Shown: piece after piece, positions 300 to 62,072 of the stretch | Position numbering within the stretch: the first letter of the stretch is position 1 | Layout: each line of letters starts with the position of its first letter | NCBI RefSeq assembly: GCF_023168325.1 | Contig: NZ_AP025688.1 | Coordinates: 4,092,001 to 4,156,000, forward strand | Origin: Tsukamurella sp. PLM1 | GTDB lineage: Bacteria; Actinomycetota; Actinomycetes; Mycobacteriales; Mycobacteriaceae | Length of the DNA: 64,000 nt | Direction of reading: 5' to 3' | Notes under the pieces: generated by a model | What the model was told of the DNA's origin: nothing | What the model saw: the letters and a program-made list of their open reading frames with translations, nothing else | The model's database searches: none | Made by a program: the position numbers and the translations under genes

Positions 300-2003
300 T
301 CAGCTCTCCGTCGCCGCAGCGGCGGCGCGGCCCGCCGTCATCCCGGAGAAGATGCACCCACCGAGGAAGGTGCCCTCCAGCGCGTTGTAGCCGTGCACCC
401 CGCCGCCACCGAATCCGGCCACCTCGCCTGCGGCGTACAGGCCGGGGACGGGCGCACCGTCGGCCCCGAGGACGCGCGCCGAGAGGTCCGTCTCGAGCCC
501 GCCGAGGGTCTTGCGGGAGAGAACGTTCAGCCGCACCGCGATGAGCGGGCCGTGCGCGGGATCGAGGATGCGGTGCGGCCTGGCGACGCGGACGATCTTG
601 TCGCCCAGATAGTTCCGCGCGTTGCTGATCGCCTGCACCTGGGCGTCCTTGGTGAAGGCGTTGGCCGTTTCGCGGTCACGGGCCTCGATCTGCCGGCGCA
701 GGTGGTCGAGGTCGACGTGGCCGCCCCGACCGATGCCGTTCATCCCCGCGACCAGCTCCTCGAGGGTGTCGGCGACCACGAAGTCCTCGCCGTGTTGCTT
801 GAACGCCTCGACCGGGCCCGGTGCGCCCTTCGACTTCACGCGCCCCAGAGCGAGTTTGATGTCCTTCTCCGTGATGTCCGGGTTCTGCTCCGACCCGGAC
901 AGGGCGAACTCCTTCTCGATGATGGTCTCGGTGAGCACGAACCACGAGTAGTCGTAGCCGGTCTCGAGGATCGCCTTCATCGTCGAATTGGTATCGAAGC
1001 CGGGGAAGTTCGGGGCGGCGAAGCGGTTACCGTCGGCGTCGAACCACAGCGACGACGGGCCGGGGATGATGCGGATCGCGTGCTGCGGCCAGATCGGGTC
1101 CCAGTTGTGAATGCCCTCCGTATAGGCCCACACCCGATCGCGATTGACGATGTTCGCGCCCGCCGCCTCGGAGATCGCCAACATCCGGCCGTCCACGTGG
1201 GCCGGCACGCCCGCGATCATGTGCTTCGGGAACGGCCCGAGCCGTTCGGTGGGCCAGTACTTCTCCATCAGCTCGAAGTTGTGGCCGATGCCACCGGAGG
1301 TCACCAGCACCGCGGGCGCGCGGAACTCGAACTCGCCCTCCACGTCTCGCGAGCTCGCCACGCCACGGTCGAGCTCCGATGGGGCGAGCACCGCACCTTG
1401 CACGCCGGTCACGGCACCGTCGGCGTCACGGAGTAGTTCGTCGACGCGATGCCGGAACGCGAAGCGCACCAGTCCTTTCTCCTCCGCCCGCTCCACCGGC
1501 TCTCGGAACACCCGGACCACCTCGGGGCCCGTACCCCAGGTGAGGTGGAAGCGCGGAACCGAGTTGCCGTGACCGTCGGCCGCGCCGCCGCCGCGCTCCG
1601 CCCAGCCGACCACGGGCGTGAACCCCAGGCCGAGCCGGCGGAGATAGTCGCGCTTGCGGTGCGTGGCGAACTCGACGTAGGCGCGCGCCCACTGCCGGGG
1701 CCAGCGGTCCTCGTCGTCGCGATCGAAGCCGGCGGAGCCCTGCCAGTCCTGCCACGCCAGCTCGAACGAGTCCTTGATGCCGAGGCGCCGCTGCTCCGGC
1801 GAGTCCACCAGGAACAGGCCGCCCAGGCTCCAGAACGCCTGCCCGCCCAGGTTCGCGCGGTTCTCCTGGTCGAGGATCAACACCCTCCGGCCCGCCCGGG
1901 ACAGTTCGTACGCCGCCACCAGTCCCGCAAGACCGGCACCGACCACGATCGCGTCGGGCTCGAAGCCGCCCGACCCCACCGCGCCGCGGTCCGTACTCGT
2001 CAT
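300..2003 (-). CDS. FAD-binding dehydrogenase (fumarate reductase/KstD-like)
   Basis: A flavoprotein of the FAD_binding_2 family (fumarate reductase, succinate dehydrogenase, 3-ketosteroid dehydrogenase), about 567 residues. The N-terminal nucleotide-binding fold is clear (IVVGAGLAGLVAAYELSRAG), as is the C-terminal FAD motif ending in YNALEGTFLGGCIFSGMTAG. The closest family I recall is the actinobacterial group containing M. tuberculosis Rv0785; its substrate is unknown to me. The ATG at 2003 is preferred over 2009 because GAGGGG (2011-2016) is 7 bases from it and only 1 base from the other. It is transcribed divergently from the TetR gene 50 bases away, a likely regulator. Confidence 0.85.
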   Translation of the reverse strand: MTSTDRGAVGSGGFEPDAIVVGAGLAGLVAAYELSRAGRRVLILDQENRANLGGQAFWSLGGLFLVDSPEQRRLGIKDSFELAWQDWQGSAGFDRDDEDRWPRQWARAYVEFATHRKRDYLRRLGLGFTPVVGWAERGGGAADGHGNSVPRFHLTWGTGPEVVRVFREPVERAEEKGLVRFAFRHRVDELLRDADGAVTGVQGAVLAPSELDRGVASSRDVEGEFEFRAPAVLVTSGGIGHNFELMEKYWPTERLGPFPKHMIAGVPAHVDGRMLAISEAAGANIVNRDRVWAYTEGIHNWDPIWPQHAIRIIPGPSSLWFDADGNRFAAPNFPGFDTNSTMKAILETGYDYSWFVLTETIIEKEFALSGSEQNPDITEKDIKLALGRVKSKGAPGPVEAFKQHGEDFVVADTLEELVAGMNGIGRGGHVDLDHLRRQIEARDRETANAFTKDAQVQAISNARNYLGDKIVRVARPHRILDPAHGPLIAVRLNVLSRKTLGGLETDLSARVLGADGAPVPGLYAAGEVAGFGGGGVHGYNALEGTFLGGCIFSGMTAGRAAAAATES

Positions 2004-2053
2004 CGTCATTCCCCTCGGTCATAACTGGACTAGACGTTCTATTTATCGCTAGC

Positions 2054-2686
2054 ATGGCACGCATCACAGGAATCGTCAACGGAGGGCTGGATCCGGTGGC
2101 CAAGGGAGTCAGGACACGAGCGCGCAGCGTCGAACGGTTCCTCGACGCGGGCCTGGACGTCTTCGCCGAGTTCGGTTTCCATGCCGCGTCCATGGACGAG
2201 ATCTGCGCCCGGGCAGGTCTGTCCCGCGGCGCCTTCTACTCCAACTTCTCCGGTAAGGAGGCGCTGTTCCTCGCCCTGTTCGACCGGCACGCCGAACATC
2301 AGATCGGCCGCATCGCCGCGGCCATCGAGTCCGCGCCGACGCTGGACGAGGCGATCGGTCGCGCCGCACTGGCGGCGGGCTCGGATGATCCGGCCGAACT
2401 CCGGTGGTCGTTGCTCTCCACCGAATTCACCGTGTACGCGGCGCGCGACGCCTCCGCCGCCCAGCGGCTCGCCGAGCACGATCGCGCGGTCCGCGCCCGC
2501 CTCGCGGCCGCACTCGCCGCCTTCGACGTGGCCCAGGCCGATGCGGAGATACTCGCCCGGTTCTCCATCGCCCTCTACGAGGGCGTGATGATGTCGCGCC
2601 TGGTCGACGGCGATACCGACACCGCCCGCGACCTGCTGACCCGCTTCCTTCCCGCCGGCCTGCACGTCGCCGTCGCACCGGGCTGA
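2054..2686 (+). CDS. TetR-family transcriptional regulator
   Basis: A 210-residue one-component regulator. The N-terminal helix-turn-helix is typical (AGLDVFAEFGFHAASMDEIC then ARAGLSRGAFYSNFSGKEAL), followed by a helical ligand domain without recognisable ligand signature. It is divergent from the FAD dehydrogenase, so control of that gene and itself is the simplest reading. The shared spacer holds a short dyad TAGA-CGT-TCTA (2031-2041) that could be its operator, though the arms are only four bases. Confidence 0.88.
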   Translation: MARITGIVNGGLDPVAKGVRTRARSVERFLDAGLDVFAEFGFHAASMDEICARAGLSRGAFYSNFSGKEALFLALFDRHAEHQIGRIAAAIESAPTLDEAIGRAALAAGSDDPAELRWSLLSTEFTVYAARDASAAQRLAEHDRAVRARLAAALAAFDVAQADAEILARFSIALYEGVMMSRLVDGDTDTARDLLTRFLPAGLHVAVAPG

Positions 2687-2697
2687 CGCGGGTCACG

Positions 2698-3881
2698 ATG
2701 CCGACGTTCACCACCGACCGCATCCTCGCGTTCCGCCTGCGCGCGCACGCACTGGCGGACCGCCTCGACGAGGACGGCCGCGCCGCGGCCGCGAGTCGGT
2801 GCGGCATCCAGGACAGCCCGCCCGGCTCCGCTCTGCTCGCCCTGAACGCCCGGGTGCGCGGCGTCACGGCCGGCACCGTCGACGATGCCCTGGCGCAGCG
2901 GGAGCTCGTACGCACCTGGAGTATGCGCGGCGCGCCCTTCGTCGTCCCCGCCGGCGATCTCCCCGTGTTCACCACCGGCGTCCTGCCGCCCTCCGAGGCC
3001 GGTGCACAGCGGCTGATCCTCGGGGTGGGCCCGGCGCTCGACGCCCTCGGCATAGGACTCGACGGTGCCGTGTCGCTCATCGCCGCCCGCACCCACGAGG
3101 TGCTGTCCGGGCGGCGCCTCGCGATCGACGCGCTGGGCGCCGAGGTGGCGCGCGCCGTCGAGCCCGACCTGAGCGCCGCGCAGCGCACCGTCTGGCGGAG
3201 CGAGGGACCGCACGCGCCCGGGCAACCGATCGGTGAGGCCGTGGTGCACTTCTGCGTGCGGATCCTGTGCCTGCAGCGGGTCGTGTGCTTCGCACCGCGG
3301 GAGGGGAACTCCGCGCCGTTCGTGCTCGCCGACGAATGGCTGGGGCCGCCCACTGCAGCGGCGTCGGCCGACGATGCGCGCGCCGAACTCGCCAGACGCT
3401 ACCTCCGCTGCTACGGCCCGTCCACGCGCGCCGGCCTCGCGACGTGGCTCGGCATACGTTCCGGTGACGCCGAGCCCTGGTGGACTGCAGTCGAACCCGA
3501 GCTGGAACGCGTCGACACGGACGGCGGTCCGGCGTGGATCCTCGCCACAGACCGGCCCGCCCTGGCCGACGCCGCCGCACCGTCGGGGGTCCGGCTGTTG
3601 CCGCCCCGCGACCCGTACACCCAGGCGCCGGACCGCTCCTCCTCGTGCCGGCGGAACGGCAGCGCGAGGTCTGGCGCGCCGTCGGCGAGCCCGGGACCGT
3701 CCTGCTCGACGGCCGGATCGCCGGCACGTGGCGGCCCCGCAAGCGCGGGAAACGCCTGACGCTCACGGTCACCGCATTCGGCAGGCTCACGAAGGCGGAG
3801 CGCGCCGCGATCGTCGGCGAGGCGGAGTCGATCGCCCCGCTCCGCGGCGCCGCGACCGTCGACGTGGAGTTCGCGGGCTGA
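2698..3881 (+). CDS. Winged-helix DNA-binding domain protein, frameshifted
   Basis: About 394 residues when repaired; starts 11 bases after the TetR gene and may be co-transcribed. It belongs to the HTH_42 winged-helix family (related to E. coli YcaQ, an interstrand-crosslink glycosylase, and Streptomyces AlkX-type proteins). Visible family features are VRTWSMRGAPFVVP near residue 75, the RRYLRCYGPSTRAGLATWLG block, and LLPPRDPYTQ. After that motif the frame breaks near 3630-3635; the continuation LLLVPAERQREVWRA and a normal C-terminus lie in the next frame, so one base appears to be missing. Likely a sequencing indel, but a true pseudogene is not excluded. DNA-repair role is by family only. 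Confidence 0.72.
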
Positions 3882-5123
3882 CTACCGCGAGACGGTGCGG
3901 TCGGCACCCGCGACGACGCCGCATGCCAGGAGCGGCGCCAACAGGAGCAGGAGACTGATCAGCGGGAGCGTCCAGGTCCCCTCCACGCCGTGCAGGACAC
4001 CCATGAGCATCGGTCCCCAGGCGGCGAGCAGGTAGCCCACGGTCTGCGACATCGCGGACAGCGACACCGCCTCCGCAGTGGTCGCGGCGCGCAGGTTCAT
4101 CATCGTGACCGCCAGCGAGATCATCGCTCCCAGCCCGAATCCCACGACGATGTTCGCGATCCAGGCCCCCATCCCGGTGCCGAACGCGAGCACCCCGAAC
4201 ACCCCGATCCCCTGCAGTGCCACTGCCGCGACCGCGACGATCCGCTGGTCGCGGCGCCGCGCTGCCCACTGTGGGAAGGTGAGCGCCGTGACCACGCTGA
4301 GCAGGCCCCCGACCGCGAGCATCGCGCCCGCGGTCTGCGCCGAGAGCCCGCGATCGCGGTAGATCGTGGGGATCCAGCCGATGAGCGCGTACGCCTGCAG
4401 CGACTGCAGGCCCATGAATCCGGTGACGGCCCAGGCGATCGGGCTGCGTAGCACCGTCCGGGCGGCGCCGGGCTCGGCGGCACCGTCGGGCTCGGGGGCG
4501 TGCTGCCGGAACCGGAGGTACCGCACCGTGACCACCGCCAGCAGTGCCGCCGCGGCCAGCGCCGGGATCGCCCAGAGCGCGAGCGATCCGCGCCAGCTGC
4601 CGCCGAGAGCGGTGGCGCCCGGCACCGTCAACGCGGACGCGACGCCGGTGGAGGCGCACACCATCGAGGTGAACAGACCCGTCATCAGTCCGAGCCGGTG
4701 CGGGAAGAAGATCCGGACCAACACCGGCCCGAGCACGTTGCCCAGCGCGATCCCAGCGCCCGCGAGCATCGTGCCGCCCAGCAGCACAGGCCAGCTCGGC
4801 AGTATCCGGAGCGCACTGCCGACCGCGATCATCGCGACGGCGACGGTGGCCACGACCACCGCCGTGTACCGACGGGCGAGCCGGGGCGCGGCGGCCGAGA
4901 ACGCGCCGAGGCACAGCACCGGGCCGGTGGTGAGCAGGGCCAACTCGCCGCCGGTCAGGCCGTAGGCGTCGCGGATCTCGGCGAGCACAGCGGACGAGCT
5001 GCCGAATACCAGGCGCAGGCAGATGCCCATGAGGATCAGCGCGGCCGCACAGGTCAGGACGCCGACGGCGCGCAGCGGCGCGAGTGCGGACTCCTTGGTG
5101 GTCGAGGTCACCCACAGAATCAT
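3882..5123 (-). CDS. MFS transporter, CynX/NimT-like
   Basis: A 413-residue inner-membrane transporter of the major facilitator superfamily with about twelve hydrophobic spans and a central polar loop near residues 205-222. The sequence between spans 2 and 3 (PRLARRYTAVVV) matches the MFS loop signature, and the overall pattern is like the cyanate/2-nitroimidazole subfamily. The substrate cannot be read from sequence. Its stop codon abuts the end of the winged-helix gene (convergent). It lies 63 bases downstream of the GntR gene on the same strand, so it may share control with the neighbouring aromatic-degradation operon and carry a substrate or product of it. Confidence 0.85.
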   Translation of the reverse strand: MILWVTSTTKESALAPLRAVGVLTCAAALILMGICLRLVFGSSSAVLAEIRDAYGLTGGELALLTTGPVLCLGAFSAAAPRLARRYTAVVVATVAVAMIAVGSALRILPSWPVLLGGTMLAGAGIALGNVLGPVLVRIFFPHRLGLMTGLFTSMVCASTGVASALTVPGATALGGSWRGSLALWAIPALAAAALLAVVTVRYLRFRQHAPEPDGAAEPGAARTVLRSPIAWAVTGFMGLQSLQAYALIGWIPTIYRDRGLSAQTAGAMLAVGGLLSVVTALTFPQWAARRRDQRIVAVAAVALQGIGVFGVLAFGTGMGAWIANIVVGFGLGAMISLAVTMMNLRAATTAEAVSLSAMSQTVGYLLAAWGPMLMGVLHGVEGTWTLPLISLLLLLAPLLACGVVAGADRTVSR

Positions 5124-5995: not shown

Positions 5996-6844
5996 ATGCG
6001 CATCGGAGTTCTCAATGACAGGGCCGTCCTCGTCCACGCAGACCACGCCCTCGACGTGGCCGAGGCCAGCGCGGGCCGGTTCGGCCCCTCGATCACGGGG
6101 ATCCTCCACGACTGGGAGCCCTTCGCGGCCTGGGCCGCGGGCGCCGACGCCTCGGCGGGATCGGTGTTCGACCCGCACGCCCTGCAGAATCCCGTGCCCG
6201 AGCCGCGACAGGTGTTCGCGGTCGGCCTCAACTACGCGGCGCACGCCGCCGAGTCCAAGTACGCGGTCCCCGATTTTCCTCCCACGTTCACGAAGTTCCG
6301 CACCTCGCTCGCCGGACCCCGCGGCACCGTCGAACTCCCCGGGCCCACCGTCGATTGGGAGGTCGAACTCGTGGCCGTCATCGGCAAGTACGCGCACAAG
6401 GTGTCCGAGGCGGACGGATGGGAGTACGTCAGCACGCTCACCGCCGGACAGGACATCTCCGAGCGAGACACCCAGTTCGACGCGAAGCCGCCGCAGTTCA
6501 GCCTCGGCAAGTCGTACCCCGGCTTCGCCCCTCTCGGCCCCGTCCTGGTGACCCCCGACGAGTTCGCCGACCGCGACGACATCGAACTCGGCTGCACCGT
6601 GAACGGCGAGCAGATGCAGAAGAGCCGCACCTCGGCCATGCTGTTCTCGGTCCCCCAGCTGGTCTCGTACCTCTCGGGTATCACGCCGCTGCTCCCCGGC
6701 GACATCATCTTCACCGGTACGCCGGAGGGGGTGGGGCTGGGCCGTACGCCCGCGCGCTATCTCAACGACGGTGACGTCCTGCGCTCGTCCATCGCCGGGA
6801 TCGGCGAACTCGAACAGACCTTCGTCGCTCCGAGTGGAGAGTAG
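5996..6844 (+). CDS. Fumarylacetoacetate hydrolase family protein
   Basis: A 282-residue FAH-fold metal-dependent hydrolase or decarboxylase acting on beta-keto or ring-fission acids. The metal-ligand pattern is visible: E122 and E124 in VDWEVELVAVIG and D153 in GQDISERD; the catalytic-end motif LPGDIIFTGTPEGVG is intact. First gene of an operon with an extradiol dioxygenase 5 bases downstream and a flavin hydroxylase after that, so its likely role is hydrolysis or decarboxylation of a ring-cleavage product. A well-placed AAGGAG supports the ATG at 5996 over the out-of-frame ATG at 5991. Confidence 0.88.
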   Translation: MRIGVLNDRAVLVHADHALDVAEASAGRFGPSITGILHDWEPFAAWAAGADASAGSVFDPHALQNPVPEPRQVFAVGLNYAAHAAESKYAVPDFPPTFTKFRTSLAGPRGTVELPGPTVDWEVELVAVIGKYAHKVSEADGWEYVSTLTAGQDISERDTQFDAKPPQFSLGKSYPGFAPLGPVLVTPDEFADRDDIELGCTVNGEQMQKSRTSAMLFSVPQLVSYLSGITPLLPGDIIFTGTPEGVGLGRTPARYLNDGDVLRSSIAGIGELEQTFVAPSGE

Positions 6845-9647: not shown

Positions 9648-10537
9648 TCAACCGACCGCGGCGACCTCCTCGTCGAGAGCGCGCAGGACCGCCGCCACCG
9701 CCGGCCGACGGTGCGCCCCCGGTCGCGTCGCGACCTCGAGGATCCGGGCCGCGCGGACGCCGACGATCTCCAGGCCGCGCACGCCCGGGTGGGTGATCGC
9801 GTGCCGGGCCACCAGCGCGACCCCCAGTCCCGCGGCGACCATCGCCTGGATCGCGTGGAAGTCGTTGATGCGCTGGATCACCCGCGGCCGCACCCCGGTG
9901 ATCGTCGCCAGGGACCGGAGCACGTCGTCCACGGGGAAGCCGTCGTTCACGCTGATCCAGTCCAGGTCCGACAGCTGAGCCGCCTCGACGCGTCCGGCCG
10001 CCGCGAGCGGGTGATCGAGCGGCACCGCGAGGTCGATCGGCTCGCGCATGAGGAGCCGCGACGCGATCCGCGGCCCCCGAGCGGCGCGGCCCGCTCGTCC
10101 CGGTGCGCCACGACGACGTCGGCATCCGCCATCATCACGGGGAGGTCGGTGCCGGGCAGGTCGGCATCGGACGCCGTCACGGCGATCCCCGCCGCGGCGG
10201 TCCGGAGCAGCACGCCCGGCAGTAGCAGTTCCGCCGCCGAGGGGAACAACGTCAGCCGCACGGTCCCCGTCGGCGTGGAGCGGTAGCGGTCCATCTCTGC
10301 GCGGGCCCGATCCAATTCCCCCAGAACCGATTCCGCCCGCACCACCAGGGCGAGTCCGGCGTCGGTGAGCCGCACTCGCCGGCCGTCGGGTTCGAGCAGC
10401 TCGACACCCGCCTCGCGTGCGAGCACCTTGAGTTGCTGGGACACGGCCGACGGCGTCATGGCCATCGCGCGCGCCGTCGCGGCGACGGTGCCGCGGTCGG
10501 CCAGCTCGCGCAGGATCCGCAGGCGATGGACATCCAT
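9648..10537 (-). CDS. LysR-family regulator, frameshifted
   Basis: A 296-residue LysR-type regulator when repaired. The N-terminal winged helix (MDVHRLRILRELADRGTVAA, with AMTPSAVSQQLKVLAREAG) is in one frame and the substrate-binding domain (LLMREPIDLAVPLDHPLA to the end) is in the next. The frame changes at the C5 run 10074-10078 on the + strand; one extra base restores a single protein. Divergent from the EamA transporter, whose gene it probably controls. The start ATG lies inside a 7-base dyad that may be its own operator. Confidence 0.8.
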
Positions 10538-10608: not shown

Positions 10609-11601
10609 ATGACCCTCCGCCACCGCCTCGTCGCCGTCACCGTCGTGGTGCTGTGGGGCGTGAACTTCCTCGCCATCCGGTACGGCCTCGACTACTTCCC
10701 TCCCCTGTTCCTGGGCGCGCTGCGCTTCCTGGTGCTGGCAGTTCCGGTGCTGCTCTTCGTGCGGCCGCCGAAGGGGCCAGTGAAATGGCTGCTGCTGTAC
10801 GGGATCGGTTCGGGCACCCTCCAATTCGGCCTGTTGTTCACGGCAATGCACATCGGTATGCCCACGGGCCTGGCCTCGCTGGTGCTGCAGTCCTCGGCGC
10901 CGTTCACGGTGCTGTTGGGCGCGGTCCTGCTGCACGAGCGGCTGCGCGGCCGCCAGGTCGTCGGCATCGCCGTCGCGGTGGCCGGGATGGCGCTGATCAT
11001 CGCCGACCGCGCCGACGCCGCCGCCGGTGTCGGTGTGCTGGGCGTGGTCCTCACCCTGCTCGGCGGGCTCAGCTGGGCGTTCGGCAACATCGGACAGCGA
11101 CTGGCGGCACCGTCGGAACCGTTCCGGTTCACGCTGTGGATGTCGGTCATTCCGCCCCTGCCGATGCTGGCGCTGAGCGCCGCGTTCGAGGGCTCCACCA
11201 CGGGCTGGAAGGCCCTCGCCCGCAGCTTCGACGATGCCGACGGCCGGCTCGCGCTGCTGGGCGTCGCGTACATCGCGGTGATGAGCACGGTCGTCGGCTA
11301 CGGGCTGTGGGGCGCGCTGATGGCGCGCTACCCCGCGTCCACCGTCGCGCCGGCGACGCTCCTCGTCCCGGTCGTGGGCATCGCCGCGAGCGCCGCCGTG
11401 CTCGGCGAGCGGCCGACCGCGCTGGCGTTGGCCGGCGCCGGAACGGTGATCGCAGGCTGCCTCCTGGGGATGCTGCGCCCGGCCGCGCTATCGAGTGGCG
11501 ACGAGCGCGATGGTGGCGGCCCCGATCTCGACGTCCCCGTCGCCGATGACCTCGGCGAGCGCCGCCCGCAGAGCAGCGCGGCGGTCGTCCGGCAGGGTTG
11601 A
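10609..11601 (+). CDS. EamA/DMT-family transporter
   Basis: A 330-residue drug/metabolite transporter with two EamA repeats and about ten membrane spans. The ATG at 10609 follows GTGGAG and puts the first span at residue 6. Typical blocks are VVVLWGVNFLAIRYGLDYFP and LLVPVVGIAASAAVLGERP. The last 35 residues are polar and are encoded antisense to the methyltransferase gene (114-base tail-to-tail overlap), so the true C-terminus could be shorter if a base is missing near 11490. Substrate unknown; divergent LysR is the probable regulator. Confidence 0.83.
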   Translation: MTLRHRLVAVTVVVLWGVNFLAIRYGLDYFPPLFLGALRFLVLAVPVLLFVRPPKGPVKWLLLYGIGSGTLQFGLLFTAMHIGMPTGLASLVLQSSAPFTVLLGAVLLHERLRGRQVVGIAVAVAGMALIIADRADAAAGVGVLGVVLTLLGGLSWAFGNIGQRLAAPSEPFRFTLWMSVIPPLPMLALSAAFEGSTTGWKALARSFDDADGRLALLGVAYIAVMSTVVGYGLWGALMARYPASTVAPATLLVPVVGIAASAAVLGERPTALALAGAGTVIAGCLLGMLRPAALSSGDERDGGGPDLDVPVADDLGERRPQSSAAVVRQG

Positions 11602-12237
11602 GTGCGCGGAGTAGGTGAACACGAGGTCCAGCCAGCGGTCCTTGGGCTGCGTCTCGGTCCACGAGTCCTCCCGCTCGGTCACCGTGAAGCCCGCGTCCGC
11701 GAAGCGGTCCCGCAGCGCCCGCATCCGGAACATCTGGTCGTGGTCCGAGCCGGCGCCCGCGGCCTCGACGTTGACGTAGTCCGCGCTCGCGGCGCGGAGA
11801 TCGTCGTTCGCCGGCCGGGTCGGACGGAGCCTGTTCCACAACAGCACGACGCGGCCGCCCGGGTTGAGCAGTGAGGCGAAGCGCGGCACCGCGGCGTCGG
11901 CGTCCACCCAGTGGAAGGACTGCCCGAACGTGATCAGGTCGAAGGTGCGGCCGGCCGCGTCCCAGCCCTCGAACGTGGCGACCTCGGCGGGCACGCCGGA
12001 CGCCCGGGCGACGTCGGCCATGGCACCGTCGGGCTCGACGGCCAGCACGTCGAGGCCCCGCGCGACCAGCTGCCGGGCCAGGATCCCCGTGCCCGCGCCG
12101 ATGTCGGCGGCGGACCGTGCGCCCGCGGTGATCGCATCGATCGTGACGTCGCTGTAGCGCGGCCGCAGCCGGTCGTAGGAGTCGGCGATGGCGCCGAACG
12201 ACATCGCCCGCTGCCGGTCCTCGTGCAGTTCAGCCAT
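11488..12237 (-). CDS. SAM-dependent methyltransferase
   Basis: A 249-residue class I methyltransferase (Methyltransf_11/25). Motif I is clear (AADIGAGTGILARQLVARG), with the acidic end of strand 2 (VLAVEPDGAMADVA) and the motif LITFGQSFHWVDADAAV typical of this family. The target is unknown. It starts 29 bases from the divergent murT gene and its 3' end overlaps the EamA gene on the other strand. Confidence 0.82.
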   Translation of the reverse strand: MAELHEDRQRAMSFGAIADSYDRLRPRYSDVTIDAITAGARSAADIGAGTGILARQLVARGLDVLAVEPDGAMADVARASGVPAEVATFEGWDAAGRTFDLITFGQSFHWVDADAAVPRFASLLNPGGRVVLLWNRLRPTRPANDDLRAASADYVNVEAAGAGSDHDQMFRMRALRDRFADAGFTVTEREDSWTETQPKDRWLDLVFTYSAHSTLPDDRRAALRAALAEVIGDGDVEIGAATIALVATR

Positions 12238-14357: not shown

Positions 14358-14464
14358 GTCCGGCACCGTCGCACCCGAATCCCGTGACGTCCGCGCCGAC
14401 GAAGAAGACATGTCAGTGGCCCGTTCTACCCTCGGTCTCATCATCGAGAGTTCGGGGGGACATC

Positions 14465-18464: not shown

Positions 18465-18988
18465 CACAGCCCCAGCACCGCCCGCTCGGTGGCGAGCATC
18501 CGCATCTTCGTCTCCACGCCGCCGCCGGCGGAGAAGCCACCCGCCCTCCCGCCGGCCGCGGTCACGCGGTGGCAGGGGACGACGGGCGGGAACGGGTTCT
18601 CGCCGAGTGCCCGGCCGACGGCACGAGCGGAGCCGGGAAGGCCTATCTCCGTGGCGATCTCGCCGTACGTGCGGGTGGATCCGGGCGGGATCCGGCGTGT
18701 CGCGTCGTACACCGCGCGCTGAAAGTCGGTGAGCCCGTGCATGTCCAGCGGCACCCACGCCAGGTCGTCGTCCAGGTTTGTGCCCGAGACCAGGTCCGTG
18801 ATCGCGGCGACGATCCGCTCGACCTCCGGCGGCGGAGCCGATTCGACGGCGCCGCCGCGCGCGAGGGACTCCGCGGTCGCGTCGTCCGACAGGTCGGGCA
18901 GCCGGACCGAGGTGACGGCACCGTCGGCGCCCCAGGCGATCCCGCACCGCCCGACGGCGGTGTCGAAGAGCGCGAACCCGGCGGTCAC
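18461..18988 (-). CDS. Methylated-DNA-[protein]-cysteine methyltransferase
   Basis: A 175-residue O6-alkylguanine-DNA alkyltransferase (Ogt/AGT). It moves a methyl group from O6-methylguanine to its own cysteine, here C139 in the invariant PCHRV. The helix-turn-helix and arginine finger region is intact (GSTRTYGEIATEIGLPGSAR, AVGRALGENPFPPVVPCHRV). The GTG at 18988 overlaps the presumed end of the SRPBCC gene; the stop overlaps the next gene. A repair function inside an otherwise mixed operon. Confidence 0.9.
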   Translation of the reverse strand: MTAGFALFDTAVGRCGIAWGADGAVTSVRLPDLSDDATAESLARGGAVESAPPPEVERIVAAITDLVSGTNLDDDLAWVPLDMHGLTDFQRAVYDATRRIPPGSTRTYGEIATEIGLPGSARAVGRALGENPFPPVVPCHRVTAAGGRAGGFSAGGGVETKMRMLATERAVLGLW

Positions 18989-31859: not shown

Positions 31860-33270
<1,411 letters not shown>

Positions 33271-37088: not shown

Positions 37089-37109
37089 GACACCACTATT
37101 TCATCAACC

Positions 37110-37124: not shown

Positions 37125-37168
37125 TACCGAAATTATCCGCGCACCCGGGCGCGCCGCGCCGGCCCCGC

Positions 37169-38694: not shown

Positions 38695-38752
38695 GGTCCT
38701 GTGCTTACCAGAACCGCGTGAACGCCGCTCGCGCCGCCGGCCTCGCGGCCGG

Positions 38753-50278: not shown

Positions 50279-50740
50279 TCAGATGCGGTGCGGGGCGAAG
50301 AAGTCGTGCAGCAGGGCTGCGCACTCGGCCTCCCGGACGCCGGCGCGAACCGTCACCCGGTGCGTGACCCGCGGGTCGCGCACGACGTCCCACACCGACC
50401 CCACGGCGCCCGTCTTCGGCTCGTAGGCGCCGAACACCAGGTGCGCGATCCGGGCCGAGACCAACGCGCCCGCGCACATCGCGCACGGCTCCAGCGTGAC
50501 GGCCAGGGTGCAGCCGCCGAGGCGCCAGCCGTCGCCGAACCGGGTCGCGGCCTCGCGGATCGCGAGGATCTCGGCGTGCGCGGTCGGGTCGCCCAGCTGT
50601 TCCCGACGGTTCCCGGCGAGCGCGAGCACGGCACCGTCGGGACCGATCACCGCAGCGCCGACGGGCACGTCGTCCGGGCCGGCGAGGGCCGCGGCCTCGA
50701 GGGCGAAGCCCATAGCCGCGCGTTCGGCATCGAGGTGCAT
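50279..50740 (-). CDS. tadA: tRNA-specific adenosine-34 deaminase
   Basis: A 153-residue zinc deaminase that converts A34 to inosine in tRNA-Arg(ACG); that tRNA is at 62489. Zinc and catalytic residues are H55 and E57 (PTAHAEILAIREA) and C86, C89 (TLEPCAMCAGALVSARI). The ATG overlaps the stop of the upstream associated protein by one base. The ending FFAPHRI and length fit TadA. Confidence 0.93.
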   Translation of the reverse strand: MHLDAERAAMGFALEAAALAGPDDVPVGAAVIGPDGAVLALAGNRREQLGDPTAHAEILAIREAATRFGDGWRLGGCTLAVTLEPCAMCAGALVSARIAHLVFGAYEPKTGAVGSVWDVVRDPRVTHRVTVRAGVREAECAALLHDFFAPHRI

Positions 50741-51337: not shown

Positions 51338-52306
51338 GTGTCCGTGCAGCGTGCCCCCCATTCCGACGTCCCCGTGTGTGTCCTCGGCCTCGGCCTGATC
51401 GGCGGTTCGATCCTGCGGGCGCTCGGCCGTGCCGGCCGCCCGGCCTACGGCTGGAACCGCTCGGCCGCCGCGGCCGACGACGCCTCCGCCGCGGGCTTCG
51501 ACGCCTCCGCGGACCTCGGCGCCACGCTGCGCCGGGCGGACGCGGGCGGGCACGTGATCGTCGTGGCCGTCCCGGTCCCCGCGCTCGACGGCGTGCTGGC
51601 GGCCGTCGCCGAGCACGCCCCGAACGCCTGGCTGACGGACGCCGTGAGCGTCAAGGGCGACGTCGCGCGGCGCGTCGCCGCAGCCGGCCTGACGGGGCGG
51701 TACGCGGGCGGGCACCCGATGGCGGGAACCGCCTTCTCGGGGTGGGAAGCCACCGACGCCGCGCTGTTCGACGGTGCCACCTGGGTCGTCACGGCCGACG
51801 ACGACACCCCCGCCGAGGCGTGGCGGCTCGCCGCCTCGGTCGGGCTGGACTGCGGCGCGGTGATCGTTCCCGCCGGCGCGGCCGAGCACGACGCGGCAGT
51901 CGCGCGGATCTCGCACTCGGTGCACGTGGTGGCCGAGGCCGTGGCGGTCACGGCCGAGCTGGACCCCGCGGCGGAGCGGCTCGCCCGATCCCTCGCAGCG
52001 AGCAGCTTCCGGGACGTCACCCGCGTCGCGGGGACGGCACCGTCGCTGGTGAACGCGATGTGCGAGGCGAACGCGGCGGCGTTGCTCGACGCGCTGGACG
52101 ACACCATCGCCGAGCTGGTCGCCGCGCGCGCGGAACTGGCCGAGCACGGCACCGTCGGGCGGATCACCGAGCAGGGCCACGCGGCCCGCACCAGGTACGA
52201 CAACGCCCGCCGCACCCCGTTCATCCCCGTGCTGGACGGAGCGGGATGGCAGCGGGCGCTGCGCGAGGCGGGTCACGCCGGGGGCGTGGTCGCCGCGCTG
52301 GGCTGA
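51338..52306 (+). CDS. tyrA: Prephenate dehydrogenase
   Basis: A 322-residue NAD(P)-dependent dehydrogenase of tyrosine synthesis. The Rossmann motif is VCVLGLGLIGGSILRALGRA; then DAVSVKGDVARRV and the conserved catalytic-histidine segment GGHPMAGTAFSGW, with a helical C-terminal dimerisation domain. The GTG at 51338 gives the usual short lead; GTG 51344 is a close alternative. Divergent from the TadA operon, as in mycobacteria. Confidence 0.88.
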   Translation: MSVQRAPHSDVPVCVLGLGLIGGSILRALGRAGRPAYGWNRSAAAADDASAAGFDASADLGATLRRADAGGHVIVVAVPVPALDGVLAAVAEHAPNAWLTDAVSVKGDVARRVAAAGLTGRYAGGHPMAGTAFSGWEATDAALFDGATWVVTADDDTPAEAWRLAASVGLDCGAVIVPAGAAEHDAAVARISHSVHVVAEAVAVTAELDPAAERLARSLAASSFRDVTRVAGTAPSLVNAMCEANAAALLDALDDTIAELVAARAELAEHGTVGRITEQGHAARTRYDNARRTPFIPVLDGAGWQRALREAGHAGGVVAALG

Positions 52307-54017: not shown

Positions 54018-56044
54018 ATGGTGACCAGCCGATCCGGTAGAGCGAACGCACGACTGTCCGGCGTCCGCTTTCCCCTGTGGGATCGCCGCGCTCCTCTGCC
54101 CGCCCCGGCGGGCGGCACGCACCACCCCCGCGTCGACCACGCCCTCCCCCTCGGCGATCCCACCGGCGGCGCCGACGCGCTCGCCTGGCGCGAGGCCGTC
54201 GACGGCCGGCTCACCTACCCGCGGGTCCACATCGACCGCAACGTCGACATCCGCATGTCCGACGGGGTGGTCCTGCGCGCCACCGTCGTGCGGCCCGCCG
54301 AGCTCGACGGGGTGCCCGTCGAGCGCCCCTACCCCGCGATCCTCAACCTCAACCCGTACAACCGGATGGTCGTCGACGCCATCGACGAGACCACGCACGC
54401 CGCCTTCGTCGGGCCGGCGCTGACGAACGCCTCGAAGGCGCTCACGGGCGGCACCGTCGACTTCTCGGGCGGCCTGCTGCAGGGCTTCGGCATCAACCGC
54501 CGGCTGGTGCGCAGCGGCTACGTCCAGGTGATCGTGGACGTCCGCGGCACCGGCACCTCGCACGGCGTCTGGCAGATCCTCGGGCCGCGCGAGCAACAGG
54601 ATTCGGTCGAAGTGCTGGCCTGGGCACGCGAGCAGCCCTGGTGCGACGGCAATCTCGGCATGGGCGGCTGGTCGTACTCGGCGATCAACTCGCTGCAGGC
54701 CGCGGGGCACGCGCCGGAGGGCCTCGGCGCGGTGTTCGCGATCGAGGGCAGCGAGGACATCGTCCGCGACATCTACATCACCGGCGGCCTGCCCTCGGTG
54801 TTCATCCCGCTGTGGCTCGGCGCCGTGAACGCCCTCAAGTGGCTCTACAACCCGCGCACCCTGCTGCGCGACACGGTGAACGGCAACGTCTTCCGGTGGC
54901 TGCACAGCCGGATCTCCTCGCCGGCCACCGAGATCTCCTCGGTCGTGTCCGGCGTCCTCACCGGCCGCGACCCGCGGGTGAACGACAACCCGTACTTCAC
55001 CGAGCGCAATCCGAAGATCGAGTCGATCACCGCGCCCACGTTCCTGTTCGGCGGCTGGCACGACCTGTTCGGCCGCAGCACGCCCCGGATGTTCTCGCAC
55101 TTGAACCTGCCCGCCGGACAGAAGCAGATGGTGGTCACCGACGGCTTCCACTTCGACATGGGCGCCGGCTTCGGCGGCACGCAGGCGCCGCCGCGCATCG
55201 ACGTCCTCGAGCGGGCCTGGTACGACCGCTGGCTCAAGGGCATCGAGAACGGCGTCGAACGGTACGGTCCCGTCACCATCAAGCAGCAGGGCGGCGGCTG
55301 GTCCGCCGGCGAGTGCTTCCCCCGCCCCGGCGCACGCACGATGCGTCTCTACGCGACCCCGGCACCGTCGGGCACGGCCGCGCACACCAAGTACGACGGT
55401 GCCCTGGCTCCTTCCCGGCGCGCCGCCGGGAGTCGGCGTCGACGCGGATCGACCTGCGCGGCCTCGCCTCGCCCGACCTGACGCAGGTGCTGGCCGGCCT
55501 GACGAAGTCCGTGCCCGCGCTCGCGCACGCGGGCGTGCAGGAACGCGGGGCGATCTCGTTCACCTCCCCACCCACGGGGGTGCCGGTCCAGCTCAGCGGC
55601 GCGATCAACGTGCACCTGGTGACGCGGTGCGAGGGCGACGAGGCCATCTGGACCGTGACCGTCAACGACGTCGCTCCCGACGGCACGTCGACGGTGCTCT
55701 CGGGCGGCGCCCTCATGGCGTCGAACCGGGCACTGGACGACACGCGCTGCGCGTACGACGTCGACGGCGAGCTGCTCGGCGCCCATCACCCGCTCACCTG
55801 GTCGGCGAAGCAGAAGGTGGTGCCGGGCGAGACGATCGAGCTCGACATCGACGTGGTCGCCACCGACGCGCTGCTCGACGAGGGGCACCGCCTGCGGGTC
55901 GACGTGTACGCCGGCAGCGTGCCGCGCTACCTGGTCACCGTGCCGGACCTGCTGAAGACCCGGTTCGGCCGGCAGACGGTGCTGCTGAGCCCGGACCGGC
56001 CGACGTACGTGAGCGTGCAGATCGTGGGCGATCCGGGCTGGTGA
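54018..56044 (+). CDS. CocE/NonD-family hydrolase (X-Pro peptidase type), frameshifted
   Basis: About 675 residues when repaired: an alpha/beta hydrolase domain plus a C-terminal jelly-roll (PepX_C), as in cocaine esterase, glutaryl-acylases and Xaa-Pro dipeptidyl-peptidases. Seen: IRMSDGVVLRATVVRPAELD, VIVDVRGTGTSHGVWQIL, nucleophile GMGGWSYSAINSLQAAG, FLFGGWHDLFG and TDGFHFDMGAG. The frame breaks at the GGG 55428-55430 and one base joins the two halves. The leader KERVAMV is excluded because a strong ribosome site precedes 54018. No signal peptide is obvious; substrate unknown. Confidence 0.85.
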
Positions 56045-56075: not shown

Positions 56076-57316
56076 ATGGTTGCCGGGTCCCCCGCCGTCG
56101 CGTCCGCTGGTGCGGCCGCGCGGCTGCACAGCGAGTTCGTCGACGGTGCGGTCGACGAGACGGTGCTGCGCACATCCCCGCTGCGGCGCCTGATCGCGGA
56201 GAGCTGGCAGCGCAGCCGCGCGCGCGGCGTGAACCCGGACGGGGAGGCACCGTCGGGCCCGGGGCGCTCGACGCGCTCCGCGCCCGCAACCCGCTCTCCG
56301 GCGTGATGCCGGTGGTCCGCAAGCTCCTGCTCGACGGTTCCGCGGGCGCGATGGTGGCGGTGGCCGACCGCGACGGCACGCTGCTGTGGGTCGAGGGCGA
56401 CGGTGCCGCCGTGCGGCGCGCCGCCGCGATGAACTTCGCGCCGGGCGCGGACTGGAGCGAGGCGTCCGCGGGCACCAACGCCCCCGGGACCGCCCTGGCG
56501 CTGGACACGGAGGTCCAGATCGCGGGCTCAGAGCACTTCGCGCGCGTCGCACACCGGTGGAACTGCACGGCCGTACCGATCCACGATCCGGTGACCCGCG
56601 CCGCGATCGGCGTCCTCGACGTGACGGGCGGCCCTGAGGTCGCGACGCCGCAGGCCATGGCCCTGGTGCGCGCCGCCGCTCTCGCCGTGGAGGGGCAGCT
56701 CGCGGTGCTCCGCCTGACGGGGCCCGTCCCCGCCACCGAGCCCGCGCGGACGCGCCTGCGACTGTTGGGCCCCCGGCCGGTCCTCGAACGCGACGGCCGC
56801 GAGGTACCGCTCACCGGCCGGCACGCGGACATCCTCGCACTGCTCGCGCGCCATCCCGAGGGCCTGACCGCCGACCACCTGGCGCTACTGCTGGACGAGC
56901 GCGACCTGGACGTCGTCACCGTGCGCGCGGAGGTGTCGCGACTGCGCAAGACCATCGGCGCGGAGTTCCTGGGCTCGCGGCCGTACCGGTTGCTGCGGCC
57001 GCTCGCCTCCGATGCGGACGACGCCGCGAGCGCGCTGCGCGCAGGCCGGATCACCGACGCGCTCGCCGTGTACCGGGGGCCGCTGCTCCCGAATTCGGCG
57101 GCGCCGGGCGTCGCGCGGCTGCGCGCCGAGCTCGCCGGGAACCTAAGGTCGGCGGTGCTCGCGAGCCGCGACCTGGGGCTGCTGCGACGCTGGCTGGACC
57201 TGCCCGACGCGCGCGACGACGAGCAGGGGTGGCGCGTCCTGCGCGCGCACGGCGACGTCCGGGAACGTGCCGAGGCCGACGGCCGACTCGCGGCGATCGC
57301 GCTCGACCTGGCCTGA
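56076..57316 (+). CDS. GAF-domain transcriptional regulator, frameshifted
   Basis: A 413-residue regulator when repaired: N-terminal AcoR-like lead (SPLRRLIAESWQRSRARGVN), GAF domain (GAMVAVADRDGTLLWVEGDG, GTNAPGTALALDTEVQIAGS, EHFARVAHRWNCTAVPIHDP), and a C-terminal winged helix (LTGRHADILALLARHPEGLT). It lacks the AAA+ sigma-54 domain of true AcoR. The frame breaks at the G4 run 56261-56264; one base gives GPGALDALRARNPLSG. It precedes the aldehyde dehydrogenase gene, its probable target. Confidence 0.83.
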
Positions 57317-58954: not shown

Positions 58955-58987
58955 TCCCGCACTGACCGGCACCAGGTGAGGGTGTCC

Positions 58988-59176: not shown

Positions 59177-59270
59177 CCGCACCGCCGCCGCCCGATCCAG
59201 CCGGATGAGCCCTCGGGCGCTCGACGCGAGCGGGTGCCGCGGTATCGCTTTGCCGCCCGACGGTGCCGCC

Positions 59271-60726: not shown

Positions 60727-60751
60727 GGGCGGAACGCTACCCGCGGAACCG

Positions 60752-61639
60752 TCACTCGTCTCGGGTTGTGCCGGCGATGCCGAGCCGTCCGGCGAGGTCG
60801 TCCAGCTGCGCGTCGCCCAGGTCGACATGGACCGTCTCGAGCGCGGCCGCGAGCCCTGCGCGCGAATCGAGCTCCGTCCTGGTCACGTCGCCGTCCGGGC
60901 TGCGGTGCCGGGCCGTGGTGTCGCCGATGGTGATCCGCGAGCCGTCGGCCGGCGCGAGCGCCGCGGCGAAGCCGGCGACGAAGACCGAATCCGGCGCGGT
61001 GGAGATGAACCAGTTCGCCACGATCCGGTCCTTCTCGACGACGCCGCGGAGGTCTAGCCCGTAGAGGTCCTTCCACACGGCACCGTCCGGGGTGTCCAGG
61101 CGGGCCTGGACCATCACGTCCAGGTCGGGGGCGGCCGATGCGTCGACACCCGCCTCGCCGAACGGGATCACGCGATAGTCTCCGTGCGGCGTCTGCTGCG
61201 GATCGCTCCGATTCAGCGCCAGCGGCGCGGTCGGCGTGAGGCCGCCGAGGCCGGTGTCCACGATGTGCTCGACGCCGCCCAGCGTGACGATCGCGACGTT
61301 GTGCGTCCGCGCCGTCGGCCGCCCGTCTCCGGCCAGATACACGCGCCCGAGCGCGTGCCGGGCGGTGAATCCGAGCCGCGGCAGCACGTCCACGTGCAGG
61401 CCCGCGTGCTCCAGGCAGTACCCGCCGCGCCGGCGGTCCGGGTCGAGCAGCTTGTCCGCGAGCGCGCCAGGTTCCAGCGAAACCGGGGCCTCCACGGCGC
61501 CGACGGTGCCGTAGCTCGCGACGTTCTCGAACGGGATGGACGCGACGTGCCGCGCGACGATCTCCGCGAGGGTCGCCGCGTCGGCGCGCACGGCACCGTC
61601 GAACCCGATACGTTCCAGATACCGCTCAGCGACCGCCAT
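60752..61639 (-). CDS. nat: Arylamine N-acetyltransferase
   Basis: A 295-residue NAT that moves acetyl from CoA to arylamines or hydrazines. The catalytic triad is C75 (RGGYCLEHAGL), H113 (TARTHNVAIVTL) and D128 (EHIVDTGLGG). IPFENVASYGTVGAVEA near residue 36 is the family start motif. In mycobacteria NAT acetylates isoniazid. TACGTT 6 bases before the ATG suggests a leaderless start. Confidence 0.92.
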   Translation of the reverse strand: MAVAERYLERIGFDGAVRADAATLAEIVARHVASIPFENVASYGTVGAVEAPVSLEPGALADKLLDPDRRRGGYCLEHAGLHVDVLPRLGFTARHALGRVYLAGDGRPTARTHNVAIVTLGGVEHIVDTGLGGLTPTAPLALNRSDPQQTPHGDYRVIPFGEAGVDASAAPDLDVMVQARLDTPDGAVWKDLYGLDLRGVVEKDRIVANWFISTAPDSVFVAGFAAALAPADGSRITIGDTTARHRSPDGDVTRTELDSRAGLAAALETVHVDLGDAQLDDLAGRLGIAGTTRDE

Positions 61640-61694
61640 GCCACCAACGTACGACCTCGAGTTCGGTCGAGGTCAAGAGGGCGCGGCGCTCCGA

Positions 61695-62072
61695 TCAGGC
61701 CTGCGGGACCGAGCAGGCGGCACCGTCGGCGCCCGTGATCCGCACCCGGGAGACGAACCGCTTGCCCGTGGAACCCTCCAGCGAGAAGCCCGCGGCGCGG
61801 CCCGGCTCGAGGTCCAGGACGAGCACGCTGTTGTCCCACACCCGCGCCTCGCCGTCGGACACCCAGACCGGCACGCCGCGCCCGTCCCCGAGCTCGACGG
61901 TGCCCAGCCGCACGTTGGCATCGCCCACCCGGAACTCGTCGACGGTGAAGACCATGGGCGCGGAGCCGTCGCAGCAGCCGCCGCTCTGGTGGATCAGCAG
62001 CGGGCCGTTCGAGTCCCACAGCTCGGCCAGCATCTCCCGCGCCGCCTGCGTCGATTCCACTCGTTCGTCCAT
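61695..62072 (-). CDS. DUF779 protein
   Basis: A 125-residue member of the DUF779 family, commonly encoded beside NAD-dependent acetaldehyde dehydrogenases. Seen: GPLLIHQSGGCCDGSAPMVF with the double cysteine, VPVWVSDGEARVWDNSVLVL and LEPGRAAGFSLEGSTGKRFV. The ATG at 62072 follows GGAGCGGGA. Here it is about 2.7 kb from the aldehyde dehydrogenase rather than adjacent. Function unknown. Confidence 0.85.
   Translation of the reverse strand: MDERVESTQAAREMLAELWDSNGPLLIHQSGGCCDGSAPMVFTVDEFRVGDANVRLGTVELGDGRGVPVWVSDGEARVWDNSVLVLDLEPGRAAGFSLEGSTGKRFVSRVRITGADGAACSVPQA

What the first reader, a model, noticed from the sequence alone, without database searches (positions are those of the whole stretch)
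1413..61904. A 10-base word, GGCACCGTCG, is about 50-fold over-represented
I count 45 exact copies (26 direct, 19 complement). With about 70% G+C, chance gives roughly one copy on both strands of 64 kb. Copies occur in at least three codon phases: GGC-ACC-GTC (Gly-Thr-Val), GAC-GGT-GCC (Asp-Gly-Ala) and GCA-CCG-TCG (Ala-Pro-Ser). The last two use GGT and GCA codons that this genome otherwise seems to avoid, so amino-acid composition is not a full explanation. The density, about one per 1.4 kb, is like the DNA-uptake sequences of Haemophilus and Neisseria; such a system is not known to me in actinobacteria. It shows no strong strand bias, unlike Chi or KOPS. Alternatives are a methyltransferase or nucleoid-protein target, or a mutational bias.
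Basis: partly seen in the sequence, partly recalled or inferred. Interest (0 to 1): 0.85.

Follow-up and report, generated by a model that had tools for sequence, protein, structure and literature searches.

The report
Uptake-sequence-like DNA word in Tsukamurella
A ten-letter DNA word is scattered about two thousand times through the genome of the opportunistic bacterium Tsukamurella, far above chance and nearly only in that genus; it looks like the 'self' tags that some other bacteria use to take up their own kind's DNA, though uptake itself has not been shown.

Summary
GGCACCGTCG occurs 45 times in the window (26+/19-; dinucleotide shuffles give 1.17) and 2053 times in the 4.39-Mb genome (reversed word 28). 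The genus is Tsukamurella. By density, 15 of 16 genus genomes (129-479/Mb) exceed the 829 other actinobacterial genomes counted (highest about 95/Mb, read by eye); G011 (72/Mb) does not. Synonymous-codon shuffling leaves a 9.5-fold excess (523 vs 55); the word is the top 10-mer in four of five Tsukamurella samples. Rare codons inside copies are conserved (GGT 78% vs 24% elsewhere). Copies lie inside and outside called genes alike, show no clear replication-strand bias (292/340) and tolerate mismatches in a graded way. A distant congener, G010, has the same word at mostly different places. ComEA, ComEC and a Tad/Flp operon are present, but relatives have them too. Best reading: the target of a sequence-specific DNA-binding protein, most likely a DNA-uptake sequence, which would be the first in Actinobacteria that I know of. 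Uptake, receptor and competence are unshown.

The parts
1413..1422 (+). motif copy, antisense in called gene 300-2009(-), Asp-Gly-Ala phase
2872..2881 (+). motif copy, Gly-Thr-Val phase
3060..3069 (-). motif copy, Asp-Gly-Ala phase
4479..4488 (+). motif copy, Asp-Gly-Ala phase
6323..6332 (+). motif copy, Gly-Thr-Val phase
10483..10492 (-). motif copy, outside called genes
11106..11115 (+). motif copy, Ala-Pro-Ser phase
12022..12031 (+). motif copy, outside called genes
13100..13109 (+). motif copy, Gly-Thr-Val phase
14362..14371 (+). motif copy, outside called genes
18917..18926 (+). motif copy, Asp-Gly-Ala phase
19335..19344 (+). motif copy, outside called genes
19584..19593 (+). motif copy, Asp-Gly-Ala phase
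20570..20579 (+). motif copy, Asp-Gly-Ala phase
22442..22451 (-). motif copy, rarer antisense phase 1
22882..22891 (-). motif copy, Gly-Thr-Val phase
23861..23870 (-). motif copy, Gly-Thr-Val phase
25756..25765 (+). motif copy, Ala-Pro-Ser phase
27163..27172 (-). motif copy, Ala-Pro-Ser phase
27307..27316 (+). motif copy, Asp-Gly-Ala phase
27559..27568 (-). motif copy, Ala-Pro-Ser phase
31622..31631 (+). motif copy, Asp-Gly-Ala phase
32786..32795 (-). motif copy, Gly-Thr-Val phase
35731..35740 (-). motif copy, outside called genes
37561..37570 (+). motif copy, Asp-Gly-Ala phase
38478..38487 (-). motif copy, Gly-Thr-Val phase
42343..42352 (+). motif copy, Gly-Thr-Val phase
42648..42657 (-). motif copy, Asp-Gly-Ala phase
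43203..43212 (-). motif copy, Asp-Gly-Ala phase
46182..46191 (-). motif copy, Gly-Thr-Val phase
46841..46850 (+). motif copy, outside called genes
50630..50639 (+). motif copy, Asp-Gly-Ala phase
51769..51778 (-). motif copy, Asp-Gly-Ala phase
52036..52045 (+). motif copy, Ala-Pro-Ser phase
52148..52157 (+). motif copy, Gly-Thr-Val phase
54450..54459 (+). motif copy, Gly-Thr-Val phase, in a peptidase S15-family gene
55361..55370 (+). motif copy, Ala-Pro-Ser phase
55394..55403 (-). motif copy, Asp-Gly-Ala phase
56246..56255 (+). motif copy, outside called genes
56398..56407 (-). motif copy, Asp-Gly-Ala phase
59258..59267 (-). motif copy, outside called genes
61501..61510 (-). motif copy, Gly-Thr-Val phase
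61592..61601 (+). motif copy, Asp-Gly-Ala phase
61719..61728 (+). motif copy, Asp-Gly-Ala phase
61895..61904 (-). motif copy, Gly-Thr-Val phase

Best explanation
GGCACCGTCG is the target of a sequence-specific DNA-binding protein of Tsukamurella, most likely one that acts during DNA uptake. It would work as the DNA uptake sequences of Neisseria and Haemophilus are thought to do: fragments that carry the word are bound and imported more often, they recombine into the chromosome, and copies therefore accumulate at whatever positions tolerate them (biased uptake plus recombination, i.e. molecular drive). SHOWN by computation: the word is strongly over-represented genome-wide, nearly genus-restricted, not explained by reading frame, gene strand or synonymous-codon choice, without a clear replication-strand bias, more conserved at the DNA level than control words, and it turns over in position while its spelling stays. 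From gene content the machine would be the Tad/Flp pilus plus ComEA and ComEC, as in Micrococcus luteus, because type IV prepilins (PF07963) were not found in 15 of 16 genus genomes. NOT SHOWN: competence of Tsukamurella, any uptake bias, the identity of the receptor.
For: Length, density and symmetry: 2053 copies, about one per 2.1 kb, 1060/993; 292 leading vs 340 lagging in a 1.297-Mb sample, p about 0.06. Not codon use: O/E 9.5 after codon shuffle, top 10-mer in the G000, G006, G010 and G004 samples, second in G014+G008; in four outgroup samples of about 60 kb 2/1.25, 3/1.75, 5/2.0, 0/0.5. DNA-level constraint: exact conservation 31-85% against 12-51% for same-composition words in five of six identity bins; GGT codon 0.78 vs 0.24, GCA 0.64 vs 0.24, GTC 0.94 vs 0.68; in Asp-Gly-Ala, 337 of 525 Gly codons are GGT, against 9.9% overall; raised conservation at wobble positions inside the word in the three common phases, with flanks mostly at or below baseline. 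Graded recognition: 30 one-mismatch neighbours 1324 vs 669; substitutions at positions 1, 2, 5 and 10 (and A at 3) are enriched, at 4 and 6-9 not. Same word, new places: of 47 G000 sites aligned to G010 (77% identity) 3 are shared, no more than control words (9%); in the other direction 3 of 13 (control 10%); yet G010 has its own excess of 76 vs 12. Taxon restriction. Machinery: ComEA (HHH and SLBB domains), ComEC, a TadA-type ATPase, two T2SSF proteins, a DUF4244 domain (Flp-like, by recall) and a Tad protein; Tad/Flp and ComEA/EC serve transformation in M. luteus (PMC4322843, passages).
Against: No transformation of Tsukamurella appeared in the papers I could search. ComEC and a secretion ATPase are each in 60 of 61 genomes searched, most of which lack the enrichment, so the machinery does not explain the genus restriction, and I found no genus-specific receptor. 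G000 has one PF00437 ATPase hit, whereas M. luteus needs two tad clusters. No bias to gene ends as reported in Pasteurellaceae. The leanest of 60 fetched 20-kb blocks include the conserved ATP-synthase operon (one copy in L114), so there is no simple core-gene enrichment; block counts are over-dispersed (mean 9.55, variance 15.5) and follow G+C (Spearman 0.48). In the rarer antisense phase 1 (142 site-pairs) conservation is not raised. The distant species G011 has only 72 copies/Mb, within the range of other genera, and for weak members (G004, G014, G011) the ratio to a synonymous neighbour word does not stand out. HIP1 of cyanobacteria shows that thousands of copies can have another cause.
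Confidence: 0.5

Rival explanations
1. A highly iterated word of the HIP1 kind: copies are created or kept by a chromosomal process tied to DNA methylation or mismatch repair, not by uptake.
For: Thousands of copies, spread over coding and uncalled DNA, taxon-restricted, with edge positions freer than the centre, resemble HIP1 of cyanobacteria, whose 1-nt deviations cluster at the ends (PMC4390886, passages). Two one-step neighbours are depleted (GGCACCGTGG 10 vs 44.6, GGCACGGTCG 16 vs 30.6), as conversion into the word would give.
Against: HIPs are palindromic and track a cognate methyltransferase; this word is not palindromic. The two methyltransferase families tested are not genus-wide: PF00145 without a match in G012 and G001, PF01555 without a match in 12 of 16 including G000. 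Only two of the possible families were tested. Taken together the 30 one-step neighbours are enriched, not depleted (1324 vs 669).
Confidence: 0.17
2. A binding site for a chromosome-architecture or recombination protein (Chi-like, FtsK-guide-like, or nucleoid protein) peculiar to Tsukamurella.
For: Genome-wide spread and DNA-level conservation fit any abundant sequence-specific binder. Two of the three low-copy blocks whose genes I tested are not obviously mobile (L114, L115).
Against: Chi and FtsK-guide sites are strand-polarised (recalled); here 292 leading vs 340 lagging. Ten bases with about one copy per 2.1 kb is long and dense for Chi (recalled).
Confidence: 0.27
3. Mutational or codon-usage bias: the word is just what high-GC actinobacterial genes tend to spell.
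For: There is a mild background: many other actinobacteria also hold more of this word than of its reverse, and the ratio to the synonymous neighbour word overlaps between weak Tsukamurella and outgroups.
Against: 9.5-fold excess after codon shuffling, in three reading phases, two of which need rare codons GGT and GCA; O/E 8.7-13.9 in all five well-filled GC3 classes; rare codons are conserved inside the word far more than elsewhere.
Confidence: 0.05
4. A dispersed short mobile repeat that carries the word.
For: A few short tandem arrays contain it (18-bp spacing near G000:C1:207152).
Against: Flanks are unrelated in sequence from copy to copy; the excess of close pairs is small (27 vs 13.7 below 50 bp).
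Confidence: 0.01

Closest known systems
DNA uptake sequence (DUS) of Neisseriaceae, receptor ComP
   Same: Over-represented 10-mer in thousands of copies (for example 2426 wadDUS and 5918 kingDUS), congruent with phylogeny, strongly conserved (PMC3630211, passages).
   Different: Different phylum and cell envelope; unrelated word; no PF07963 (type IV prepilin) match in 15 of 16 Tsukamurella genomes, so no ComP-type receptor was found; one spelling in the species sampled rather than dialects; uptake not demonstrated.
Uptake signal sequence (USS) of Pasteurellaceae (Haemophilus)
   Same: 9-bp core with looser surroundings and less conserved extra positions (PMC1939737, passages).
   Different: No extended flanking consensus (only a weak C before and purine after); no bias to gene termini (PMC2346458, abstract).
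HIP1 (highly iterated palindrome) of cyanobacteria
   Same: Genome-wide high-frequency short word maintained across a lineage.
   Different: HIP1 is palindromic and linked to methyltransferases (PMC4390886, passages); this word is not palindromic and no genus-wide methyltransferase was found in the two families tested.
Tad/Flp-pilus transformation system of Micrococcus luteus
   Same: Actinobacterial comEA/comEC plus tad genes are present.
   Different: The terms 'uptake sequence' and 'foreign DNA' do not occur in the M. luteus paper (PMC4322843); M. luteus needs two tad clusters, while one PF00437 match was found here.

Membership tests
DNA uptake sequence (DUS/USS) | Short non-palindromic word in hundreds to thousands of copies far above chance | tested here: met
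   2053 copies; 523 vs 55 after codon shuffle
DNA uptake sequence (DUS/USS) | Both orientations, no replication-strand polarity | tested here: met
   1060/993; 292 leading/340 lagging, p about 0.06; origin assumed at contig start and terminus placed by skew
DNA uptake sequence (DUS/USS) | Restricted to, and shared by, a clade | tested here: met
   15 of 16 Tsukamurella above the 829 other genomes by density (tables read by eye); G011 not
DNA uptake sequence (DUS/USS) | Kept at DNA level irrespective of frame | tested here: met
   met in the three common phases, not in antisense phase 1 (142 site-pairs)
DNA uptake sequence (DUS/USS) | Graded excess of near-matches | tested here: met
   1324 vs 669 for the 30 one-mismatch forms
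DNA uptake sequence (DUS/USS) | Scarce in recently acquired DNA | tested here: inconclusive
   L140, with transposase and integrase genes, free of copies after its first 1.2 kb; 2, 0, 0, 8 copies in four 20-kb stretches of plasmid Tpau01; but ATP-synthase block L114 also has one only
DNA uptake sequence (DUS/USS) | Competence machinery in the genome | tested here: met
   ComEA, ComEC, Tad/Flp genes, not genus-specific
DNA uptake sequence (DUS/USS) | DNA carrying the word is bound or taken up preferentially | not testable with these tools
   needs an experiment
Neisserial DUS-ComP system | ComP-type type IV minor pilin receptor | tested here: not met
   No PF07963 match in 15 of 16 genus genomes, G000 included; the model is short (27 positions) and could miss a divergent pilin
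HIP1-type iterated palindrome | Palindromic word | tested here: not met
   GGCACCGTCG is not its own complement (sequence)
HIP1-type iterated palindrome | Cognate lineage-wide methyltransferase | tested here: inconclusive
   two families tested, neither genus-wide
Chi / FtsK-guide type site | Polarised to the leading strand (recalled) | tested here: not met
   292 of 632 on the leading strand

The most novel reading that the evidence does not exclude
Tsukamurella is naturally competent and recognises its own DNA by GGCACCGTCG, the first uptake sequence outside Neisseriaceae and Pasteurellaceae, read by a new kind of receptor on a Tad/Flp pilus or by ComEA rather than by a ComP-type minor pilin.
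Probability: 0.45. Interest if true: 0.92.

Novelty: new variant of a known kind. Interest (0 to 1): 0.82.

Why it matters
[quoted passage not shown] a Pasteurellaceae receptor was predicted in 2025 (PMC12616744, listing only). A third, unrelated case in a mycolic-acid actinobacterium would show that uptake sequences evolve repeatedly, would point to an uptake receptor on a different pilus, and would imply natural competence in an order (with Mycobacterium, Nocardia, Rhodococcus) where it is little studied (recalled). The genus is also a ready-made series from about 72 to about 479 copies per Mb, so the build-up of such a word could be followed. Even if the word is not an uptake signal, a 10-bp word kept about 2000 times, partly against codon preference, points to an unknown DNA-binding function.

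Tried and rejected
Amino-acid repeats or codon use as the cause: rejected; the surplus of the three tripeptides (507 vs 268, 353 vs 176, 293 vs 142) is close to the number of motif copies in those phases (222, 151, 108; the gene sets of the two calls differ slightly). RNA-level function: sense and antisense copies in genes are about equal (268 vs 252). Terminator-type inverted pairs: close opposite pairs are few and mostly differ in spacing. Gene-end bias: none. Dialects: G010 was sampled for another spelling; the same word is top. A control that looked awkward, GGT codons in Asp-Gly-Ala outside the exact word (conserved 0.83), was not independent: 37 of 38 such sites are the enriched one-base variant CGACGGTGC with another last base. 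Methyltransferase: two families tested. Phages: 40 kb of TIN2 hold 2 copies and 30 kb of TIN3 none, at 59% G+C, too little to conclude; one search turned out to be a Skermania phage (accession misremembered; no copy in 30 kb). Core enrichment: contradicted by the ATP-synthase block. Synonymous-neighbour ratio: separates only the strongly enriched species. The first gene caller was replaced; even the second covers only 81-83% of bases, so 'outside called genes' includes missed genes. The G011 stretches were mostly masked and gave nothing.

Full report
1. Observation. The word GGCACCGTCG is present 45 times, 26 on + and 19 on -, between 1413 and 61904, as stated. Dinucleotide-preserving shuffles give 1.17 on average and at most 4 in 100; a third-order Markov model gives 2.15, and the word ranks first among 10-mers of the window. 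Over the whole 4,391,067-base genome there are 1060 + 993 = 2053 copies against 28 of the reversed word.

2. Organism. One genus-mate, G004, has contigs of 4,379,918 and 99,806 bases, which are the lengths of the chromosome and plasmid of Tsukamurella paurometabola DSM 20162 (PMC3156402, passages). A search with the window genome's ComEA protein finds 8 loci of named Tsukamurella at 61-66% identity, above all other organisms listed.

3. Distribution. Copies per genome in the genus: 2053 (own) and 360 to 2346 in 15 others. With the rounded genome sizes given, 15 of 16 lie at 129-479 copies per Mb. In 829 other genomes (handles G016-G844: family, order, phylum) the highest count I read is 447 (G189, 6.4 Mb) and the highest density about 95 per Mb (G525); these maxima are read by eye from the tables. 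The exception in the genus is G011, 72 per Mb, a fragmented assembly whose first three contigs are largely masked. By the S15-peptidase protein, G010 and G011 are the most distant members (73-74% identity), and they have the lowest densities. A milder excess over the reversed word exists in many actinobacteria. A synonymous neighbour word (GGCACCGTGG) as control separates strongly enriched species (ratio 36 in G000, 45 in G006) but not weak ones (G004 7.7, G014 6.1, G011 5.1) from 13 outgroup genomes chosen by me, several because they were rich in the word (2.8 to 13.4); the ratios are my arithmetic.

4. Not codons, not amino acids. Under synonymous independence given the proteins, coding copies are 183 against 21 expected in 464 kb; the Ala-Pro-Ser phase is 33 vs 0.57, the Asp-Gly-Ala phase 77 vs 3.9, and the Gly-Thr-Val phase, which uses common codons, 63 vs 15.4. 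Shuffling synonymous codons leaves 523 vs 55 in the 1.297-Mb sample; the word is the top 10-mer in the samples of G000, G006, G010 and G004 and second in a 40-kb G014+G008 sample; four outgroup samples of about 60 kb show 2/1.25, 3/1.75, 5/2.0 and 0/0.5. The excess is 8.7- to 13.9-fold in all five well-filled classes of third-position G+C; a sixth class held only 2 genes and no copy. The tripeptides that the word encodes are about twice as common as composition predicts, and the surplus is near the number of motif copies: the DNA word shapes the proteins. In Asp-Gly-Ala, 337 of 525 Gly codons are the otherwise rare GGT.

5. DNA-level conservation. In a syntenic 20-kb region of 15 genus genomes, copies are conserved exactly in 31-85% of aligned pairs against 12-51% of same-composition words in five of six identity bins; in the lowest bin (70-76%) 0 of 83 are conserved against 8.7%. 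Rare GGT and GCA codons inside the word are kept (0.78 and 0.64) far more than elsewhere (0.24 and 0.24). Relative to the same base at the same codon position, conservation is raised inside the word, most at positions 4, 6, 7, 9 and 10, and near baseline at 2, 3, 5 and 8, which are mostly non-wobble positions; the flanks are mostly at or below baseline (153 sites, 1629 site-pairs; G010 left out of this count). In the rarer antisense phase 1 (142 of the 1629) it is not raised. At 77% identity G000 shares 3 of 47 sites with G010, no more than control words; in the other direction 3 of 13, against 10%, though G010 has its own six-fold excess: the spelling is old, the places mostly new. Closer pairs share 8 of 17 (G000 to G004) and 17 of 23 (G000 to G006). 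Genomes share ancestry, so these are not independent counts.

6. Anatomy. The recognised unit is about (C)GGCACCGTCG(R), the flanking letters being weak (68% C, 78% purine). Among one-mismatch forms, changes at positions 1, 2, 5 and 10, and C to A at 3, are enriched; changes at 4 and 6-9 are not. The 30 one-mismatch neighbours total 1324 vs 669 and 405 two-mismatch neighbours 5757 vs 5056. Copies are 520 in called genes, 109 outside and 3 at edges, in a sample 81% of which is called as coding, so there is no preference for either. 292 lie on the leading and 340 on the lagging strand, p about 0.06 (origin assumed at the contig start, terminus placed by skew). Spacings have a CV of 1.00, with an excess below 50 bp (27 vs 13.7) that includes tandem arrays, and fewer gaps above 5 kb than expected (33 vs 49.8), which the 20-kb stretches partly force. 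Counts per 20-kb block vary more than random (mean 9.55, variance 15.5) and rise with G+C (Spearman 0.48). No bias to gene ends.

7. Islands. Of 60 twenty-kb blocks the five lowest (1-3 copies) are all below 69% G+C. I tested the products of ten genes from three of the five: L140 has a transposase, an integrase-core protein and a P-type ATPase, and is free of copies beyond its first 1.2 kb; L115 holds catabolic genes; L114 is the ATP-synthase operon, which is core. Four 20-kb stretches (80 of 99.8 kb) of the T. paurometabola plasmid hold 2, 0, 0 and 8 copies. Scarcity in foreign DNA is therefore suggested, not established.

8. Mechanism. A word kept in several phases and on both strands, with graded near-matches and moving positions, needs a sequence-specific reader and a process that spreads or favours it. 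Biased DNA uptake plus recombination is the accepted account in Neisseria and Haemophilus (PMC3630211 and PMC1939737, passages). The genome has ComEA (HHH and SLBB domains), ComEC, and a Tad/Flp operon, the set used for transformation by Micrococcus luteus (PMC4322843, passages). But ComEC was found in 60 of 61 and a secretion ATPase (PF00437) in 60 of 61 genus, family and order genomes searched; G011, the poorest in the word, is the one without the ATPase, in a fragmented assembly. Type IV prepilins (PF07963) were found in one of 16 genus genomes, G011. So the machine is plausible and the genus-specific part, the receptor, is unidentified.

9. Rivals. HIP1-like maintenance, a chromosome-architecture or recombination protein, mutational bias and a mobile repeat were considered (see Rival explanations). 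The second is the most serious; only an experiment separates it from uptake.

10. Novelty. Ten paper searches were made. Among the rows listed (several lists were capped) I saw no report of this word or of an uptake sequence in Actinobacteria; others (Tsukamurella with natural transformation; the word and its complement) returned nothing. The library lacks most subscription journals. I read passages or abstracts, no whole paper.

Noticed in passing
L100 (T. paurometabola plasmid, G004:C2:60001-80000): This stretch has 70.7% G+C and 8 copies of the word while the neighbouring 40 kb has none at 65-66%: it may be chromosomal DNA carried by the plasmid.
   Followed up: no
G000:C1:207152-207197 and G001:C3:74513-74651: Short arrays of the word with 18-bp and 43-bp spacing, perhaps repeats in a protein-coding gene.
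   Followed up: no
L096:9355-10317 (-): ComEA of this genome is only 61-66% identical to that of 8 other Tsukamurella, while an S15 peptidase is 84-91% identical in 13 of 15: ComEA may evolve fast, as a receptor might.
   Followed up: no
L097:5953-6771 (-): A TadC-like (T2SSF) reading frame runs on into a DUF4244 domain; either a fusion or a missed gene boundary.
   Followed up: no
window 37096-39105 (-): One open frame matches a LigD primase-polymerase fragment at its start and a phytase-like domain after it; may be a start chosen too far upstream or a fusion.
   Followed up: no
G011:C212:2004-2081: The only genus genome with a type IV prepilin match, and the one without a PF00437 match and with the lowest word count.
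   Followed up: no
L114 (G000:C1:1150001-1170000): The ATP-synthase operon region has a single copy of the word in 20 kb.
   Followed up: partly
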